Part shown: piece after piece, positions 19,750-27,497 of the stretch
Layout: each line of letters opens with the position of its first letter
Numbering within the stretch: the first letter of the stretch is position 1
Assembly: GCA_004123355.1 (NCBI GenBank)
Contig: SCHM01000003.1
Span: forward strand, 5,661,058 to 5,725,057
Origin: Amphirosellinia nigrospora
Taxonomy: Eukaryota; Ascomycota; Sordariomycetes; Xylariales; Xylariaceae
Direction: 5' to 3'
DNA: 64,000 nucleotides
Program-made: the position numbers and the translations under genes
The notes under the pieces: generated by a model
What the model was told of the DNA's origin: nothing
Databases searched by the model: none
The model's input: the letters and a program-made list of their open reading frames with translations, nothing else

Positions 19750-20487
19750 ATGACGACACTCACCAAAAAACCAGACACTTACCTATTTGGGGGTGACAAG
19801 TAAGTTCCTTCCTATGAATCCTCCGGAGGAACGCCGGGACGTTATTTCCGTAAATACCGGCCTAAAGAGCGAAAGCGAACTAACGATCTCCCCAGGCCCT
19901 GGCTTGCGGAGTCGTGGGTAGCCTCAGACGATCGCGTACGGGGCGGGAGGAGCCAAAGCCACCTGGAGTACACCTCTGAATCAGAGGATACCGTGCGCTT
20001 CCACGGGGACCTGGACATCACCGCGCTGGGCGGCGCTGGGTTTGCCTCCGAGAGATCCCCGGATCCACAGCGCTGGGATTTGTCAGGCTTTGAGGGCCTG
20101 CGTCTATCGATCAGGGACGGGGACGGGAAGAAGTACACGCTCGTCATCAAGGACGAGATACTCCCCAAGCGGCCCGACGGCCGGGAGCAGAGCACCGTTA
20201 GTTGGGAATTCGACTTCGTCGACTTCGGTACCGAGCTACATATCGCCTGGCAAGACCTCACACCTATATAGGGAAACCGAAGCCAGATGCTAAGCCACTG
20301 GATCTTGCGTGTATCAGAAGAATCAGTATCATGATGCGAAGGTTCGTCATTATTTAGTCGAGCCTGGCCCCTAATCGTTCAACTGCTGAGTCCAGATAGT
20401 TTCTTTGGAGAACAAGAGGGTCCCTTTTCCCTCGAGCTTCGACATATCGCAGCAACCAATGTTCTGGGCCCAACCCAAAATCTGTAA
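19750..20487 (+). CDS. CIA30-family protein
   Basis: Member of the family of complex I intermediate-associated protein 30 (NDUFAF1-like). CIA30 helps assemble mitochondrial NADH:ubiquinone oxidoreductase; the shorter fungal paralogues are less well characterised and may be cytosolic. Exon 1 (19750-19799) encodes MTTLTKKPDTYLFGGDK; the intron 19800-19895 has a CTAAC branch site. Exon 2 gives PWLAESWVASDDRVRGG, then FHGDLDITALGGAGFASE, RWDLSGFEGLRLSIR and STVSWEFDFVDF, all characteristic of the family. After WQDLTP near 20265 the frame shifts, consistent with loss of a 4-base ACCT repeat unit. The continuation reads KPKPDAKPLDL then RISIMMR, an intron of about 60 nt follows, and the last exon reads SFFGEQEGPFSLELRHIAATN with a stop at 20485-20487. 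No targeting peptide is obvious. It is either a recent pseudogene or an intact gene with a sequence error. Confidence 0.8.
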
Positions 20488-22279
20488 TCATGACGCTTCC
20501 ACGAAAGCGGATATCCCCTAATCTCATATCAGTTTTATATGACAGCACAAAAACACACATAGCAAGCTCTCCCTGGCTCGCGTTCATCACGAGATGTCAA
20601 GGACTTGTCTACTGTGGTTAGAGCAAGTCAAAACCCGGCGGACGCCGACGGACGGGAAACGTATCAAAAATGATGGGAACGGCCGTGCGCAGTCTATCCA
20701 GCATCTTATCCACTTTATAAGGCTAGACTGACGCTTGTGTAGCATGGGTAGATTTACAGTGCCTGTGCGTGAACGGCCGAGATGGTTCAAGGTCTTCCTT
20801 GCTATTAATCTCTTAACTGAGCTGCTAAGTCTATAATGGCGATACTGTTACTTTACTATATTAGACTCGCTGTATACCTTCCAAAAGAGAGGTTTTATAA
20901 TCACCAAACGGCTAGGTTGTTCGCGATGCTCGTGTAGACCTCATCTCCCTGGTTCCTACCTTGTCCTTCACTTGTGGATATACCCTGACATTGCCGCTAG
21001 AACCTTGAAAAATGGTTAGGTAATTCTGCAAGACTATGGTATATTGCACCTAACGACTGTTAGATGACTAAAGTTAGTAGTTTACTAATCATTCTTCATC
21101 AACAGCAATTCAGTATACATAGCACGTGAACAAACGCACGTCCGTTTTTATGGCAGCTAGAGCAAGTATCACGCTAAAATGGGTTGTTAACGTTACATGC
21201 GGTAGTATGTGGCGCTGCACTAAAAGCTATGTTCCTCTAACAGATCGCAGCTTTACCAAAACCACCCGCCCATCGAAGAATACTTGTACTGTATAATGAG
21301 GCGGAAGAAATTATCCCTTAAAATACATAAGCACCCTAGCAGATATGGGGGGCACTATGTCAGGTACAATCTTGCTCACACTACAGGTCAGCACTACTAT
21401 TGCCGTAGCCGCATCTAATCTGGCATCTAATAATTCAATTCGGAACGGAAGTACAGGGGCCACGAGCTCTCCCTGATGTAGTGCTTACGATGTCATATGC
21501 CGGAGTTTCCAGGATCGTAGGGCTGGCTGATACGTTCTAGAGCTATTTATCAAGCTTATGGAATCTGTCTTATGACGGTGAAAAAAAAAACCGTTCTTCG
21601 CTAGCACTGGCTAACCATTGGTTCGATTTCTACCAGTTTATGGCTTCTAATCTAGGCATAGATTGACTCAGGTACCGCCGAGCTCGTCTCGCCTCTACGT
21701 AGTAGCTACTATATTTACTGACGTGGGGAAGGAGGGTGATAATTACATAACTGGACAAATATATGGATCACTGATCTGGACTACTACTACAAGGATACTG
21801 TTTTGAAAATAGGCTATCCCCCTATAGGGCTACCTTGCGAGGCCTGAGGACGTATCCTCTTGCGAGCCCATGCCACAGAGATGGTAGAGAGAGCAAGGGA
21901 AAGAGACTATGGCTAGGGACAGAATCTTGTAGACAAACCGAGGTTATTCATTGCCACCTAATTTCACGCTGGTTTCCTCACCATACACCATACAGTATGT
22001 GTGAAGCACCGAGGGCCCGGACTAAAAGGTTGCGTGATCTAGCCAGCGAATCTTTGCATTTGAAGGCGAAATGAGTACGAGTTAATAAGTTTGTTGTTTT
22101 GTACGAGACTGGCATCACCACTGTGTTACTACTGCTAATTTTGATCAGTAACGAAGGCCTAGACATTATTTTTTCTGATTCTACCGAATTGCCATCAGCC
22201 AACGGCTACGAAGATATTCACGTTTGCCCCCGGTTGGCCATACTAACCCGGTAGGGATAATGTTCGTTTCGATATGCTG
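20488..22279. other. Intergenic, no gene seen
   Basis: No coding sequence that I can support. There is a run of ten A near 21581. No upstream exon of the repeat gene that follows could be recognised here. Confidence 0.55.
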
Positions 22280-23769
22280 GCGAGGAGATGTTAGTTGGAA
22301 GGTTGCAAAAGTCGTGCTGATAAGTCTGGTTTGTCCTACAGACACCTCCCCAAAAAAGAAAGACCCAAGAGAAAGGCGTGTTCCACTGAGGGCTACCGCA
22401 GGCAATCTGACAAACACGGCCACTGCTACACACACCTTCCAGAAAAGGAAAATAAAAAAGGAAGAAAGATGTACATAGTATGCTACTAAAAAAGTAATAG
22501 GTCATCTAACAAACACAGCCACTGTTATCCACACTTTCTGGAAGACGAAAGACCTAAGAAAGAGTTGTGTACTGCTACAAGCTGTAACGGATGATCTTAT
22601 AAACACGACCACTGCTACAAACACCTTCTAGGAAACAAAAATCTTAGGCTAAAGACGTATGCTACTAAAAACTATAGCGAACCATCCAACAAACATAGGT
22701 AGCCACTGCTACACACACGATCTAAAATATATATGCTACTAAAAGATAATAAACAAAAGCAAAGATGTATGCTATTATGGCTATAATAAACAAGCTAACA
22801 ATATGTCTATGTTACCTCTGCCCACACTCTGAAAAAAAAAAAAGATATATGCTACTAAGGGCTGTAATAACCGATCTTTCAAACATGACCACTGTAACAA
22901 ACACCTTCCAGGAAATAACGGAGGAAGAAAGAGATATACTACTGAAGGTTAAACCACAGTGGCTACAAAGCTTGATCTTGGCTTCCGACACCTCCCAAAA
23001 GACCAGAGGCGAATCGTCGTTAACAGGTGTGCCGTTGAAGATTGCCCGAAACGGGGTAAGAAAACAAAGTTATTGCCTCCAGCATCTTCCACAAGAAGAC
23101 AGACCTAAAACACACAGACGTGTCCTGTCGAGTGTTGCGACGGAAAAGTCATCAAACATGGTCGCTGCTACTCACACCTTTCAGAAAACGAAAAAGCCTC
23201 AAGGAAAAGAGGTGTGTGCTACTGAAGATTGTAACAATATGGTTGTATGGTCTGGTCAGTGCTGTCGACACCTCTCACGAGAAAAGAAATGGGTTTCCCA
23301 GAAAGATGTGTACCACTGAAAGTTGCAACAATAAGTCACGCAGGCTTGGACATTGCTAAAATCTTCCAAATGAAGATAGATTACCCGCCAGGAAGTGTAT
23401 TGTTGAGGGCTGCGATAGCCGGAGAAAGTTTGGTTATTGCCACCAACATCTTCCAGAAGAAGAGAAACCTAAAAGAAAGACGTGTGTCACTACAAATTGC
23501 AACACATTGTCACTCAAACATAGCCATTGCTGCCAAGATTTCTAGAAGAAGACAGATTTGAAGCCATTTGTGCTGCTGGGGGCTACGATAACCGGAAAAT
23601 AAGCGTGGTTATTGTGATGGGCATTTTAAAGAAATAATAACGAAAGAAAAGTCGCCATGGTAAGAACTGCGATCACGGCAAACGCGACGATCTGTTGGAA
23701 AGCATGGTTGTTTTCACGATCCTGAGGCTAACAAGGACTGTCTTATCTGTATGGAGCCCGAGTCTAAGT
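22280..23769 (+). pseudogene. Decayed tandem zinc-finger-like repeat gene
   Basis: About 16 head-to-tail copies of a unit of roughly 87-94 nt (29 residues when intact) with consensus C-x3-GC-x8-C-x2-HLPE-x4-PKRK, that is C-x4-C-x8/9-C-x2-H. The best copy starts at 23396: Cys at 23396, 23411 and 23438, His at 23447, reading CIVEGCDSRRKFGYCHQH. Neighbouring first cysteines at 23309, 23396 and 23483 are exactly 87 nt apart. The spacing resembles the C-x4-C-x9/10-C-x2-H repeats found beside some WRKY domains and in expanded fungal and oomycete proteins. The 3' end reads GKHGCFHDPEANKD then CLICMEPESK and a stop, so the protein ended in a cysteine pair. Copies are scattered over frames, with internal stops in the 5' and middle units (units 3-8 are the worst). 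No start codon or promoter was identified. Metal binding is inferred from the cysteine/histidine spacing only. Confidence 0.75.
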
Positions 23770-24288
23770 AGGGACCAAGGCTTCTTCGTAACCTTCGTCG
23801 ATAACAACAATTATCATACAGTGCTTGTAATCCTCATAGCTGGGTCTAGATGTGCAGCGATAGGATCATTGAAACAATGGGGTCTTCTTGTCCTTAACCA
23901 ATAGTTTAGTCTATATAACTGGAAAACTGTTCGCTTTATATCCATGTCTGCCTTCCGTCGCCAAATGGGTATAGACTGGTGGCGGATACTCTTACTACCA
24001 GGGATACTACTGTAGGTGATCGACCACTTTCGCAAAAAGTCACTGTGTACATATTTGTCCTTTTGCTCAAGAATAAGCTCATGATCCAGTCTATTCTTGT
24101 CACGAGTCCAGTACACGTATAGTCAACTGCAAGCAGTCAAGTGCTCGACTTGACAACGTTCTACCTTTTGTAGTTGTGGTATAGTGTGCAGTTCTGTATC
24201 ATGACAATTCTCATTGTAGCTTGTTTATCCATGAGATTCATCGTCGTTGAATATGTATGCTCGTTCCTTCTAGTGACACGAAGAAGCA

Positions 24289-24314
24289 CCCCCCCCCCCC
24301 CCCCCCCCCCCCCC
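24289..24314 (+). repeat. Poly-C run (26)
   Basis: Twenty-six consecutive C residues. Such a long C homopolymer is rare in fungal nuclear DNA and its true length cannot be trusted. Confidence 0.95.
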
Positions 24315-24649
24315 GAATCTAGAAACCATAGATACCTGGGGTTCCAACTTATGTAATTATTATTGATGGAGGGACATCGCTCTCGTGAGGATAGATGGAT
24401 GAGGTTGCTCTTTAAATACTTCTGATACAACGATGCTGAACCTGAACATTTCTCATACCAAACCACCCAAGTCATAATCCCTAACGGATATTAATCCCGC
24501 ATTTCCTAATTATACACGTTTATATCGGTCATGTCACGAACCCTGCAGGGGTGGGGTGTAAACATCTGTTACACGGAGAAGCAGTGAAGTCATCTCCGTG
24601 GGCTCTATGTGACTACTTGACTATATACAGAGAGTTTCTTTGTCCCGGG

Positions 24650-24666
24650 ATTATTATTATTATTAT
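24650..24666 (+). repeat. (TTA)n microsatellite
   Basis: Short perfect trinucleotide repeat in non-coding DNA. Confidence 0.85.
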
Positions 24667-26452
24667 CATCACCTCTCGTTGTTAAACCCCCTCTTAAGAT
24701 ATCAGCCCAAGTCGATACGAAATCCAACGAAATAGAAACAAGAAACATAATCTCGAGATACCTGAGACGCTGACGGTTCTAGTTTGAAGAACGACTCGTA
24801 GTGCTGTGATACTCCATTGCTGTCTACAGAACTGAGTCTACATCACTCACACTTACTTACTTCTCTACATTATAATCCTGAATGTGCCGAGAGGTGTGCC
24901 GTAGTAAATAGTCAACTTTTTATTTGATTTTATTCCAAGAGGTTTTCTAAAAATGCCAGAAAAGGTAAAAGAGAACAGGTGAATGAATAAGTAAATAGAG
25001 TCCGGCGACTTTATTTACAGCTCACATTATTATGAAGCATGGATTGCGCAACAAGAGTCTTCTGCTTTTAAACGAGCCTACTAGCAGACGAAGATCATCT
25101 AGGTCTCTTCGCGGAACAACTACGTATCCAGGATACTTCTCACGCTTACTGTAGGCACAAGGCTGTTCTGATACACATAGCAAGGATAGGATGAATAAAG
25201 AGTTAGATAAGTAGGACTGTCCACTCAACTTCTCAACGGCTTCTTTTGATTTTGGTCTTATTTTTTACTAGACAACCAAACGTTGCGCCCGATGTAATAA
25301 TCCGCCCGTCTCCGGTTCCGTGGAAAGTCTTTTCCGTTCTCTTCTTTTCGATAGTTGGTATCTTGAACCACGGCGCCTGTCCTAGCTGCTGCTCATACAC
25401 ACGTACACGAAAGTTTACAAAACCTGACGCCTCCACATACGTAATGCAACGTACGCAGCATCTGATTACACATGCGTCGGCAGTCCTTTCAGATGCTGCA
25501 TCCCAAACTCCCGTCCTTGATATCAGGTTAAAAAACAACCTGTTACCGATATCACCACACGAACTCCTTCTTTTTCTCTATCAAAATGACAACTGAGTAC
25601 TTAGCATATAATGGAATAGGGAAAAGCTTAACCATAACGACGTGTCTGAAAATGCTCCAACGCCTCCCTAACGAGATCCGATCTTTCCGACGAAAATGCA
25701 GCAGGCCAAAAGAGAGCAGCACAAATAAAATTGTTACCAGCCTGGCTAGCTCCCTAAGAGCTGCCAAGCTGGACGATGATGGATATGTAGCCGTCGGTAA
25801 CAGCCTCGTACCATCGCAACCAAGCTCTTAATGAATTTACATTTTGCGCGCACAACTTCGTGCTACCAGAAAATGGGTGCCGAGTGATTTGTGGTATCGT
25901 TGTCTCGCAAAGACGTGTGGTTGTCTCGGCTGTGACGCAAGAAAAGAAATCAAGGAAACCGTCGCTGCAACGCCGTCTATGCACCAGAATGCAGGGTCTG
26001 TGGGTATGAAACTCGGCGTAGACGAGTATATAGGAAGCTGAATTCCTGATTATCCCACCACAGGTATATCATATCATATCATCTCTTTAACTCCGGGATA
26101 AATGTATCAAGGAAAACCCAGGGAGGTAGCCGGACCAAAACCTAACGAAAGGTCCTTGGCATATTCTCGCAATGACTGCGTTCGCCTAGACCATGGCATT
26201 AAACGCTTTTAATCCTGCCAAATTAGGGTAGCCGTATGTTGATCGATTCAAAAGGTAATAAGAGAACTCTTCTCAGGGTATCAAGTTTGATTAGTTGGAA
26301 TACCGACAAACATGGCCTTCAACCGTTCTGATCCTTCGGTCTTTCATTAAGTAATCGTATTAAGCACTATCTCTGAGAGAAAGGGGGCTGCTGGGATTTT
26401 TCATAGCCATCCGGTATTATTAGGAGTCACGGATTCGTCTCGGTGAAGAATA

Positions 26453-27497
26453 CTAGGTTAGTCGGTGACCGTCTCCAGTAACAGAGTCGACGGGAGGATC
26501 CGAGAGGTTGATCAACAACTGTGTAAGGCAACGCTTGGTCGCCGCGTCGTCACGAAGCACTGAGCTGAAGGTAGCATCGCGAAGCGCTCTGGTAAGCATT
26601 GGCGAAGAGCTTCTCGGGCACGTGCATTATCACTAAGACGCAAAAAGCAGCGCAAACGTGCTTGAGCAGTCGAGCAGTTTGTTGCTCAACAAGTTGAGCG
26701 ACCATATTGCTCAACACAGTTCCCACTGCATAGAAACGCTCATAGGTAGCGCAGATATAGTTGAGACCGTTGTCATCAAGTAGGATCTTCTGGACGATGA
26801 AGATGGCCACAGTTTTACTAAGCTCAGACCCAGTCTCCATGATACGAAGACAGAGAGGAATGATCTCGGTGGTTAGCAAGAAATTAATCACCTCCGTCGA
26901 GTCGTTCTTAACAAGTGCTCCGATGACACGAGAGAGGTCAGGCGCAGATACTCGAAAGGGCGGGACTTGGAGGTTGTATTGAGGAACGGATAGAGGAAGA
27001 GAGGAATATGAGCTGCATCAGACAGCGTTAGAAATGCCTGGAGCGAGTGTAGTACTGTGGAAGGGGGGGAGTTGCATGGCTAGGGGCGCATACCGTTCAA
27101 GAACAAGGTCCGGGTATCATTGTGGAGGCCACACATTGAAGCAGTGCGAGAGCATTGGACTCTGTTAGAGGCAGCAGCTGTGAGCTGGGAAGGGTTGAGG
27201 AGGTTGTACACCGAAATGATCTCCTGCATAAGGGAGGTCATAACACCTAGAGGTCGTGGCGTAGATTAGCCGACTCGTTCCTTCGCATGGTTCCGGGGCG
27301 GGGAGCTTACCAAACGAGTGCCACAGGATCATAGCCAGTTCGGGAACCTGCTCACGCTTCTTGCTGAGCTCGAGAAGAGCGGCCTCGCGTGTGCTCTCGT
27401 TAAGGAGGTCGGCAACGAAGCCCATGGTGCGACGGTTATCCTCAGTCAAGGTTTCCATGCCCGTCTCCTGGAGATGGCCACCCATGGATGTGGTCAT
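26453..27497 (-). CDS. CAF40: CAF40/Rcd1 (CNOT9), CCR4-NOT subunit
   Basis: Conserved armadillo-repeat subunit of the CCR4-NOT deadenylase complex, acting in mRNA turnover and translational repression. The start [17 protein letters not shown] (27497) leads into [18 protein letters not shown] and [12 protein letters not shown]. After an intron at 27247-27310 comes [18 protein letters not shown]; after a second at 27013-27093 comes [19 protein letters not shown]. The hallmark core follows: [35 protein letters not shown] and [17 protein letters not shown]. The expected C-terminus ([19 protein letters not shown], then [11 protein letters not shown]) is present but in a shifted frame, with a stop at 26453-26455. 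At least five small frame changes are needed, for example GCCTCCCAC reading as GCCTCCAC and CTCGGTGTC reading as CTCGTGTC. Since the gene is highly conserved and single copy in fungi, sequencing error is likelier than gene death. It lies downstream of KIN1 on the same strand. Confidence 0.93.

What the first reader, a model, noticed from the sequence alone, without database searches (positions are those of the whole stretch)
22280..23769. Decayed array of about 16 C-x4-C-x8-C-x2-H repeats ending in a CLIC cysteine pair
Units of 87-94 nt (29 residues) repeat across 1.5 kb, with exact 87-nt spacing between the cysteines at 23309, 23396 and 23483. The Cys/His spacing resembles the small zinc-binding repeats that flank some WRKY domains, but the HLPE-x4-PKRK linker is distinctive. 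The array stands alone in gene-poor DNA and the 3' units are better preserved than units 3-8, as if it grows or is homogenised at one end while the other decays. It may represent a little-described expanding repeat family.
Basis: partly seen in the sequence, partly recalled or inferred. Interest (0 to 1): 0.72.

Follow-up and report, generated by a model that had tools for sequence, protein, structure and literature searches.

The report
Dead gene of repeated zinc fingers
A fungal chromosome carries the broken remains of a gene that seems once to have encoded about fifteen small zinc-binding fingers in a row, similar to fingers found in plant WRKY19-type proteins and phage endonucleases; it is a real fossil, but an isolated and probably silent one.

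Summary
Window 22286-23650 holds 15 tandem units of about 30 residues on the + strand, plus a weakly supported 16th. A profile of 3' units scores 160 on the 5' half (40 shuffles: maximum 22). The true spacing is C-x4-C-x9-C-x2-H; x8 is clear only in unit 13. The best frame path carries 4 stops and 13 frame breaks, and 5 of 15 units keep all four ligands: a pseudogene. No second locus was found in its 48.1-Mb genome, probably a Pezizomycotina ascomycete. It is most likely protein-derived: a profile of 26 phage and Streptomyces HNH-endonuclease fingers, reached through units 1-2, scores 71.9 on units 9-13 (30 shuffles: maximum 22.1), and the majority unit's best Pfam match is Zf_WRKY19 (20.5 bits, cut-off 27). 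Against this, a translation-free test shows no third-codon-position excess. Best reading: a decayed multi-finger gene, perhaps nucleic-acid binding when alive. Interest is low to moderate.

The parts
22286..22375 (+). Unit 1; stop codon directly after its first Cys; an ATG lies just upstream at 22274
22376..22844 (+). Units 2-6: unit 2 well kept; units 3, 5 and 6 have Tyr in place of the first Cys; one stop (unit 4) and six frame breaks (units 5, 6); perhaps an extra partial unit near 22725-22761
22845..23024 (+). Units 7-8: first Cys replaced by Tyr in both; stop at the second Cys of unit 8
23025..23479 (+). Units 9-13, the block with the best kept ligands; 9, 10, 11 and 13 keep all four; one stop (unit 12) and four frame breaks; recognised by the phage-finger profile
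   Evidence: 71.9 bits at 23028-23485
23480..23650 (+). Units 14-15, partly kept, three frame breaks
23651..23769 (+). Possible 16th unit (KHGCFH) and CLIC tail ending in a stop codon; in register but not significant on its own

Best explanation
This is a pseudogene. Its ancestor encoded a protein with at least 15 tandem, about 30-residue CCCH zinc fingers (C-x4-C-x9-C-x2-H followed by an HLPE / basic linker), of the same broad finger class as Pfam Zf_WRKY19 and the fingers of phage HNH endonucleases. Shown: the array, its strand and unit, its outside relatives, its lesions, and that no second locus was found. Inferred: the array grew by tandem duplication of single units (unequal crossing-over or slippage). 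In the living protein each unit bound one zinc through its three Cys and one His, and the chain with basic linkers gripped nucleic acid, or possibly a protein, at many points. Selection then lapsed, and stops, frame breaks and loss of the first and second Cys accumulated. It most likely does nothing now.
For: Array and unit. Lesions: 4 stops and 13 frame breaks, 5 of 15 units with all four ligands. Outside relatives: tblastn of units 1-2 against plasmids gave a Streptomyces chartreusis open frame (E 2e-3) with four C-x4-C-x9-C-x2-H fingers followed by HNH_3. A profile of 26 such fingers scores 71.9 on units 9-13, against a maximum of 22.1 in 30 shuffles, 22.3 in 80 other tiles (both strands) and 15.6 on the minus strand of the array. 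hhalign of 15 window units with those 26 fingers: probability 94.9, score 29.2; 0 of 100 permutations that kept the ligand columns reached it (maximum 21.8). Majority unit: best Pfam match Zf_WRKY19, E 4.4e-4. No second locus: with two weak hits judged chance. The neighbouring UTP14 gene has a 626-aa open frame, so the breaks are unlikely to come from a generally poor assembly.
Against: Alignments made without translation show no third-codon-position excess: 172/583, 183/578 and 168/580 mismatches at positions 1, 2 and 3. The excess comes from a protein-fitted alignment that favours the frame, and units 9-15 alone lack it. Five real stretches gave no credible Pfam hit, and two gave none in NCBIfam and PHROGs. 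With the 21 phage rows alone, 1 of 200 ligand-kept permutations reached the hhalign score of 25.15, and units 1-8 alone reach only 67%. The first relative was chosen as the best hit of a search with the window's own units. No intact fungal relative could be looked for here. No nucleic-acid binding was tested.
Confidence: 0.85

Rival explanations
1. Non-coding minisatellite whose translation only looks like a zinc finger.
For: Repeats are near 90 nt; translation-free alignments show no third-position excess.
Against: A profile of outside proteins recognises five successive units on the right strand. Columns for Cys and His use both synonymous codons, e.g. TGC 9 / TGT 4 at the third Cys and CAC 9 / CAT 3 at the His.
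Confidence: 0.03
2. A living gene: the breaks are introns, sequencing errors or recoding.
For: Frame breaks can come from long-read indels; the 3' units keep 25 of 28 ligands.
Against: Ligand replacements (Cys to Tyr in 5 of 15 units at each of the first two Cys) and stops are not indels, and lie inside fingers. A neighbouring gene has a clean 626-codon frame.
Confidence: 0.05
3. Relic of a mobile element: a finger-bearing HNH or homing endonuclease that entered the genome and died.
For: Closest outside matches found are HNH endonucleases of phages and a plasmid; the collections searched hold no fungi, so this may be a bias of what could be searched.
Against: No HNH domain in the 10 open frames scanned in and around the array (10 of the 31 listed). 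The 3' array and 6.3 kb upstream gave no second copy. Fifteen fingers is more than the 1-4 counted in those loci.
Confidence: 0.07
4. Sub-hypothesis on the decay: repeat-induced point mutation (RIP) killed the 5' half.
For: The 5' half has TpA/ApT 1.42 (composite index 0.44, rank 23 of 633 windows). TpG to TpA changes at 15 of 39 sites in units 1-8 against 4 of 38 in units 9-15 (p 0.007).
Against: Other stretches of the window have an equal or higher index. CpA to TpA, the mirror change, is not raised (8 of 35 against 6 of 28). The shared Tyr codons may be one change copied by duplication.
Confidence: 0.15

Closest known systems
Pfam PF24906 Zf_WRKY19 (WRKY19 zinc finger domain)
   Same: Best Pfam match of the majority unit given twice (E 4.4e-4, 20.5 bits, profile positions 2-22 of 24; the next of 8 families listed has E 0.036); Cys/His order as recalled for plant members
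   Different: Below the curated cut-off of 27 bits; none of five real stretches matches it at E up to 10; no WRKY domain seen in the frames scanned; the HLPE/basic linker differs from the HGGG that follows the His in plant members (recalled, not from a call)
C-x4-C-x9-C-x2-H fingers of HNH endonucleases of phages and a Streptomyces plasmid (L033, L035, L037-L045)
   Same: Same ligand spacing in 26 of 28 fingers collected with a spacing-limited pattern; shared E-G-C start and Gly two residues before the third Cys in the aligned consensus; profile match
   Different: 1-4 fingers counted per locus, 9 of 28 followed by GDP in the linker, HNH_3 after the fingers in L033; here at least 15 fingers, another linker and no HNH found

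Membership tests
Pfam Zf_WRKY19 | Score over the curated cut-off (27 bits) | tested here: not met
   Five real stretches: no match at E up to 10; majority unit twice: 20.5 bits, E 4.4e-4. The Streptomyces finger protein also falls short at 17 bits.
Pfam Zf_WRKY19 | Three Cys and one His in C-x4-C-x(9-10)-C-x2-H order (spacing of plant members recalled) | tested here: met
   Units 4, 9, 10, 11 and 13 keep all four ligands; spacing x9 in four of them (unit 9 across a frame break), x8 in unit 13.
Pfam Zf_WRKY19 | WRKY or other known partner domain in the same protein | tested here: inconclusive
   10 of the 31 open frames (20354-25828): no family below E 0.07. Frames not scanned, or a partner lost from the locus, cannot be excluded.
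HNH-endonuclease-associated finger | Finger sequence similarity beyond the ligands | tested here: met
   hhalign score 29.2, 0 of 100 ligand-kept permutations reach it; phage rows only 25.15, 1 of 200 reach it.
HNH-endonuclease-associated finger | HNH nuclease domain in the same protein | tested here: not met
   None in the 10 frames scanned in and around the array; 21 further listed frames were not scanned.
Zinc-binding domain | Binds zinc | not testable with these tools
   AlphaFold2 model of the unit 12-14 stretch is weak (mean pLDDT 68.6) and had no significant fold match (best E 8.6).

The most novel reading that the evidence does not exclude
The array is the fossil of a lineage-restricted fungal family of long poly-finger proteins, perhaps captured from another kingdom or a mobile nuclease, which links phage HNH fingers with eukaryotic WRKY19-type fingers; living relatives with many fingers still exist in other fungi.
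Probability: 0.15. Interest if true: 0.5.

Novelty: new variant of a known kind. Interest (0 to 1): 0.27.

Why it matters
If intact relatives exist, this would document in a fungus a long tandem zinc-finger protein of a class named after a plant protein and found here in phage nucleases, and its loss. As it stands it is one dead locus, useful chiefly as a pointer: the finger class seems broader than the Pfam model, since a plasmid HNH protein with four fingers of the same spacing also falls below the model's cut-off (17 bits).

Tried and rejected
Other loci in the own genome: weak hits at C5:6397636 (L011) and C1:3893138 (L012) hold no C-x4-C-x(5-11)-C-x2-H motif in six frames of about 3.1 kb each (one search had looked at three frames only, the wrong strand for L011) and are judged chance. 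The one genome-contig hit, in Methanocorpusculum (L034), lies in a frame that reads like an ABC transporter (recognised from memory) and is judged chance. Viral scans with the unit 12-14 and unit 1-2 stretches gave no relative; plasmids with units 12-14 and phages with units 1-2 gave none; the second plasmid hit (Sphingobium, E 1) was not followed. Viral scans with the bacterial and phage fingers gave 2 and 14 loci; among these 16, two distinct contigs hold the finger (L035 = L047, and L048). PDB: profile A1 gave two matches, E 0.1 and 1.8, judged chance; the Streptomyces protein gave one at E 0.65. PF24906 over the own genome: no match, but the 14 control genomes did not ring either, so that is no proof of absence. 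Rfam over 21800-24400: nothing at gathering score. Array extension into 21000-22285 and 23770-25000: scores 17.2 and 13.6, no better than unrelated tiles. Fold of the phage HNH relative L035: mean pLDDT 76.1, finger blocks about 67-72, helix starting just after the third Cys; too weak to build on, no fold search run on it.

Papers: ten searches, of which one search was about the TRIM element; I saw listings with titles and abstract starts only, often the top of a longer list. None of those titles or abstract starts describes such a fungal array. The spacing string of the finding occurs in one paper on Haloferax RPA3 (PMC3438722, listing), and an x10 form in one on Brassica CCCH genes (PMC6307296, listing); neither was read. 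For PMC10886601 the abstract and section list were seen. That nothing in print was found rests on these searches alone.

Full report
Place. The window lies on contig C5 of a 48.1-Mb, 11-contig genome. The UTP14 gene in the window matches PDB chain 5oql_K at 405 bits and 6ke6_RQ at 80 bits. These are the Chaetomium thermophilum and baker's yeast proteins (organisms recalled, not printed by the call), so the host is most likely a Pezizomycotina ascomycete; the species was not identified. The array sits between an open frame with a CIA30 domain (19804-20268 +) and one with an Rcd1 domain (26553-27017 -). Ten open frames in and around the array (of 31 of at least 50 aa listed) gave no Pfam family below E 0.07.

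Observation. A frame-shift-tolerant alignment to a cyclic 31-column profile finds 15 units from 22286 to 23650 on the + strand. The majority unit is M-C-A-T-E-G-C-N-N-R-S-N-K-H-G-H-C-Y-R-H-L-P-E-E-E-R-P-K-K-R-K, i.e. C-x4-C-x9-C-x2-H; the x8 in the finding is clear only in unit 13. To limit circularity a profile of six 3' units was scored on the 5' half: 160.3, against a shuffle maximum of 21.8 (n = 40), a maximum of 20.6 in 76 other + strand stretches and 12.0 on the minus strand. The 16th, CLIC-bearing unit is in register but scores 15.2 against a null maximum of 16.5 (n = 60).

Decay. The best path carries 4 stops (units 1, 4, 8, 12) and 13 frame breaks (6 in units 1-8, 7 in units 9-15). 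All four ligands survive in 5 of 15 units (4, 9, 10, 11, 13); 19 of 32 ligands in units 1-8 and 25 of 28 in units 9-15 (p 0.018). The first and second Cys are each Tyr in 5 of 15 units. A RIP-like contribution in the 5' half is possible but not shown.

Growth. Mean nucleotide identity among units is 0.545 (1-8), 0.534 (9-15) and 0.505 between the halves, and for unit distances 1 to 12 it stays between 0.49 and 0.55. So there is no sign of recent homogenisation at either end; that the duplications are old is inferred from this divergence.

Is it protein-derived? For: protein-fitted codons give dN/dS 0.34 in frame against 0.75 and 0.49 in shifted frames, with a third-position excess of 0.08 (2.7% of 300 column bootstraps at or below zero). 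But that alignment favours the frame, and units 9-15 alone show no excess (0.480, 0.441, 0.477). Against: 41 ungapped segments chosen without translation show mismatch rates of 0.295, 0.317 and 0.290 at positions 1-3, no excess. In-frame stops (4) do not differ from one shifted frame (5), only from the other (48).

The main evidence comes from outside. tblastn of units 1-2 against 72,556 plasmid records gave two records; the first (CP108843, Streptomyces chartreusis, E 2e-3, no gene listed under the match) is an open frame with four C-x4-C-x9-C-x2-H fingers and an HNH_3 domain. Its finger part finds 79 phage records. All nine phage loci that I fetched hold such fingers; with L033 and L035 they give 28 fingers by a pattern that allowed 5-10 residues between the second and third Cys, 26 of them x9. 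A profile of those 26 scores 71.9 on the array at 23028-23485, i.e. units 9-13, not the units that found the first relative; shuffles reach 22.1 (n = 30), 80 other tiles 22.3. hhalign of the 15 window units with the 26 fingers gives 94.9% and score 29.2, with 0 of 100 ligand-kept permutations as high. With the 21 phage rows alone it is 91.6% and 25.15, with 1 of 200 as high; units 1-8 alone give 67%, units 9-15 94%. The majority unit given twice has Zf_WRKY19 as best of 8 Pfam families listed, E 4.4e-4, 20.5 bits, under the cut-off of 27; the next is at E 0.036. The Streptomyces protein likewise gets 17 bits. Five real stretches of the array give no Zf_WRKY19 hit.

Copy number. DNA and protein searches of the own genome return the array at this locus only; two further weak protein hits are judged chance. 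The genome search scores only its best candidates, so a very diverged copy could be missed.

Interpretation. The simplest account is a dead gene of a long tandem CCCH-finger protein, of the class shared by WRKY19-type and HNH-associated fingers, with its own linker. Zinc binding of the ancestor follows from the ligand pattern and is inferred; nucleic-acid binding is a guess from the basic linkers and from the nuclease and WRKY company of the relatives (about 0.5). Membership in Zf_WRKY19 proper is not claimed because the cut-off is not met. Nothing seen here suggests that the array is functional, expanding or widespread in this genome.

Noticed in passing
window 24098-24206 (+), and at least 41 further copies in the own genome: A 109-112-nt dispersed element with TGTCA...TGACA ends, 84-98% identical to the window copy (40 of 115 candidates scored). 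In 15 of 20 copies parsed the two flanking 5-nt stretches are identical, including the window copy (ATTCT). A version with two such repeats about 209 nt apart and CCCAG on both sides lies at G000:C5 about 7736502-7736931. It looks like solo LTRs of a very small TRIM-type retrotransposon; no tRNA in the window by ARAGORN and no Rfam match in 21800-24400.
   Followed up: partly
L033 1222-2157 (CP108843.1): An open frame of a Streptomyces plasmid with four C-x4-C-x9-C-x2-H fingers and HNH_3 is not in the (incomplete) gene table of that record; fingers of the same spacing recur in the nine phage loci fetched, most annotated as HNH endonucleases, and the Streptomyces protein scores below the Zf_WRKY19 cut-off.
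   Followed up: partly
window 24289-24314: Run of 26 C about 520 nt downstream of the array.
   Followed up: no
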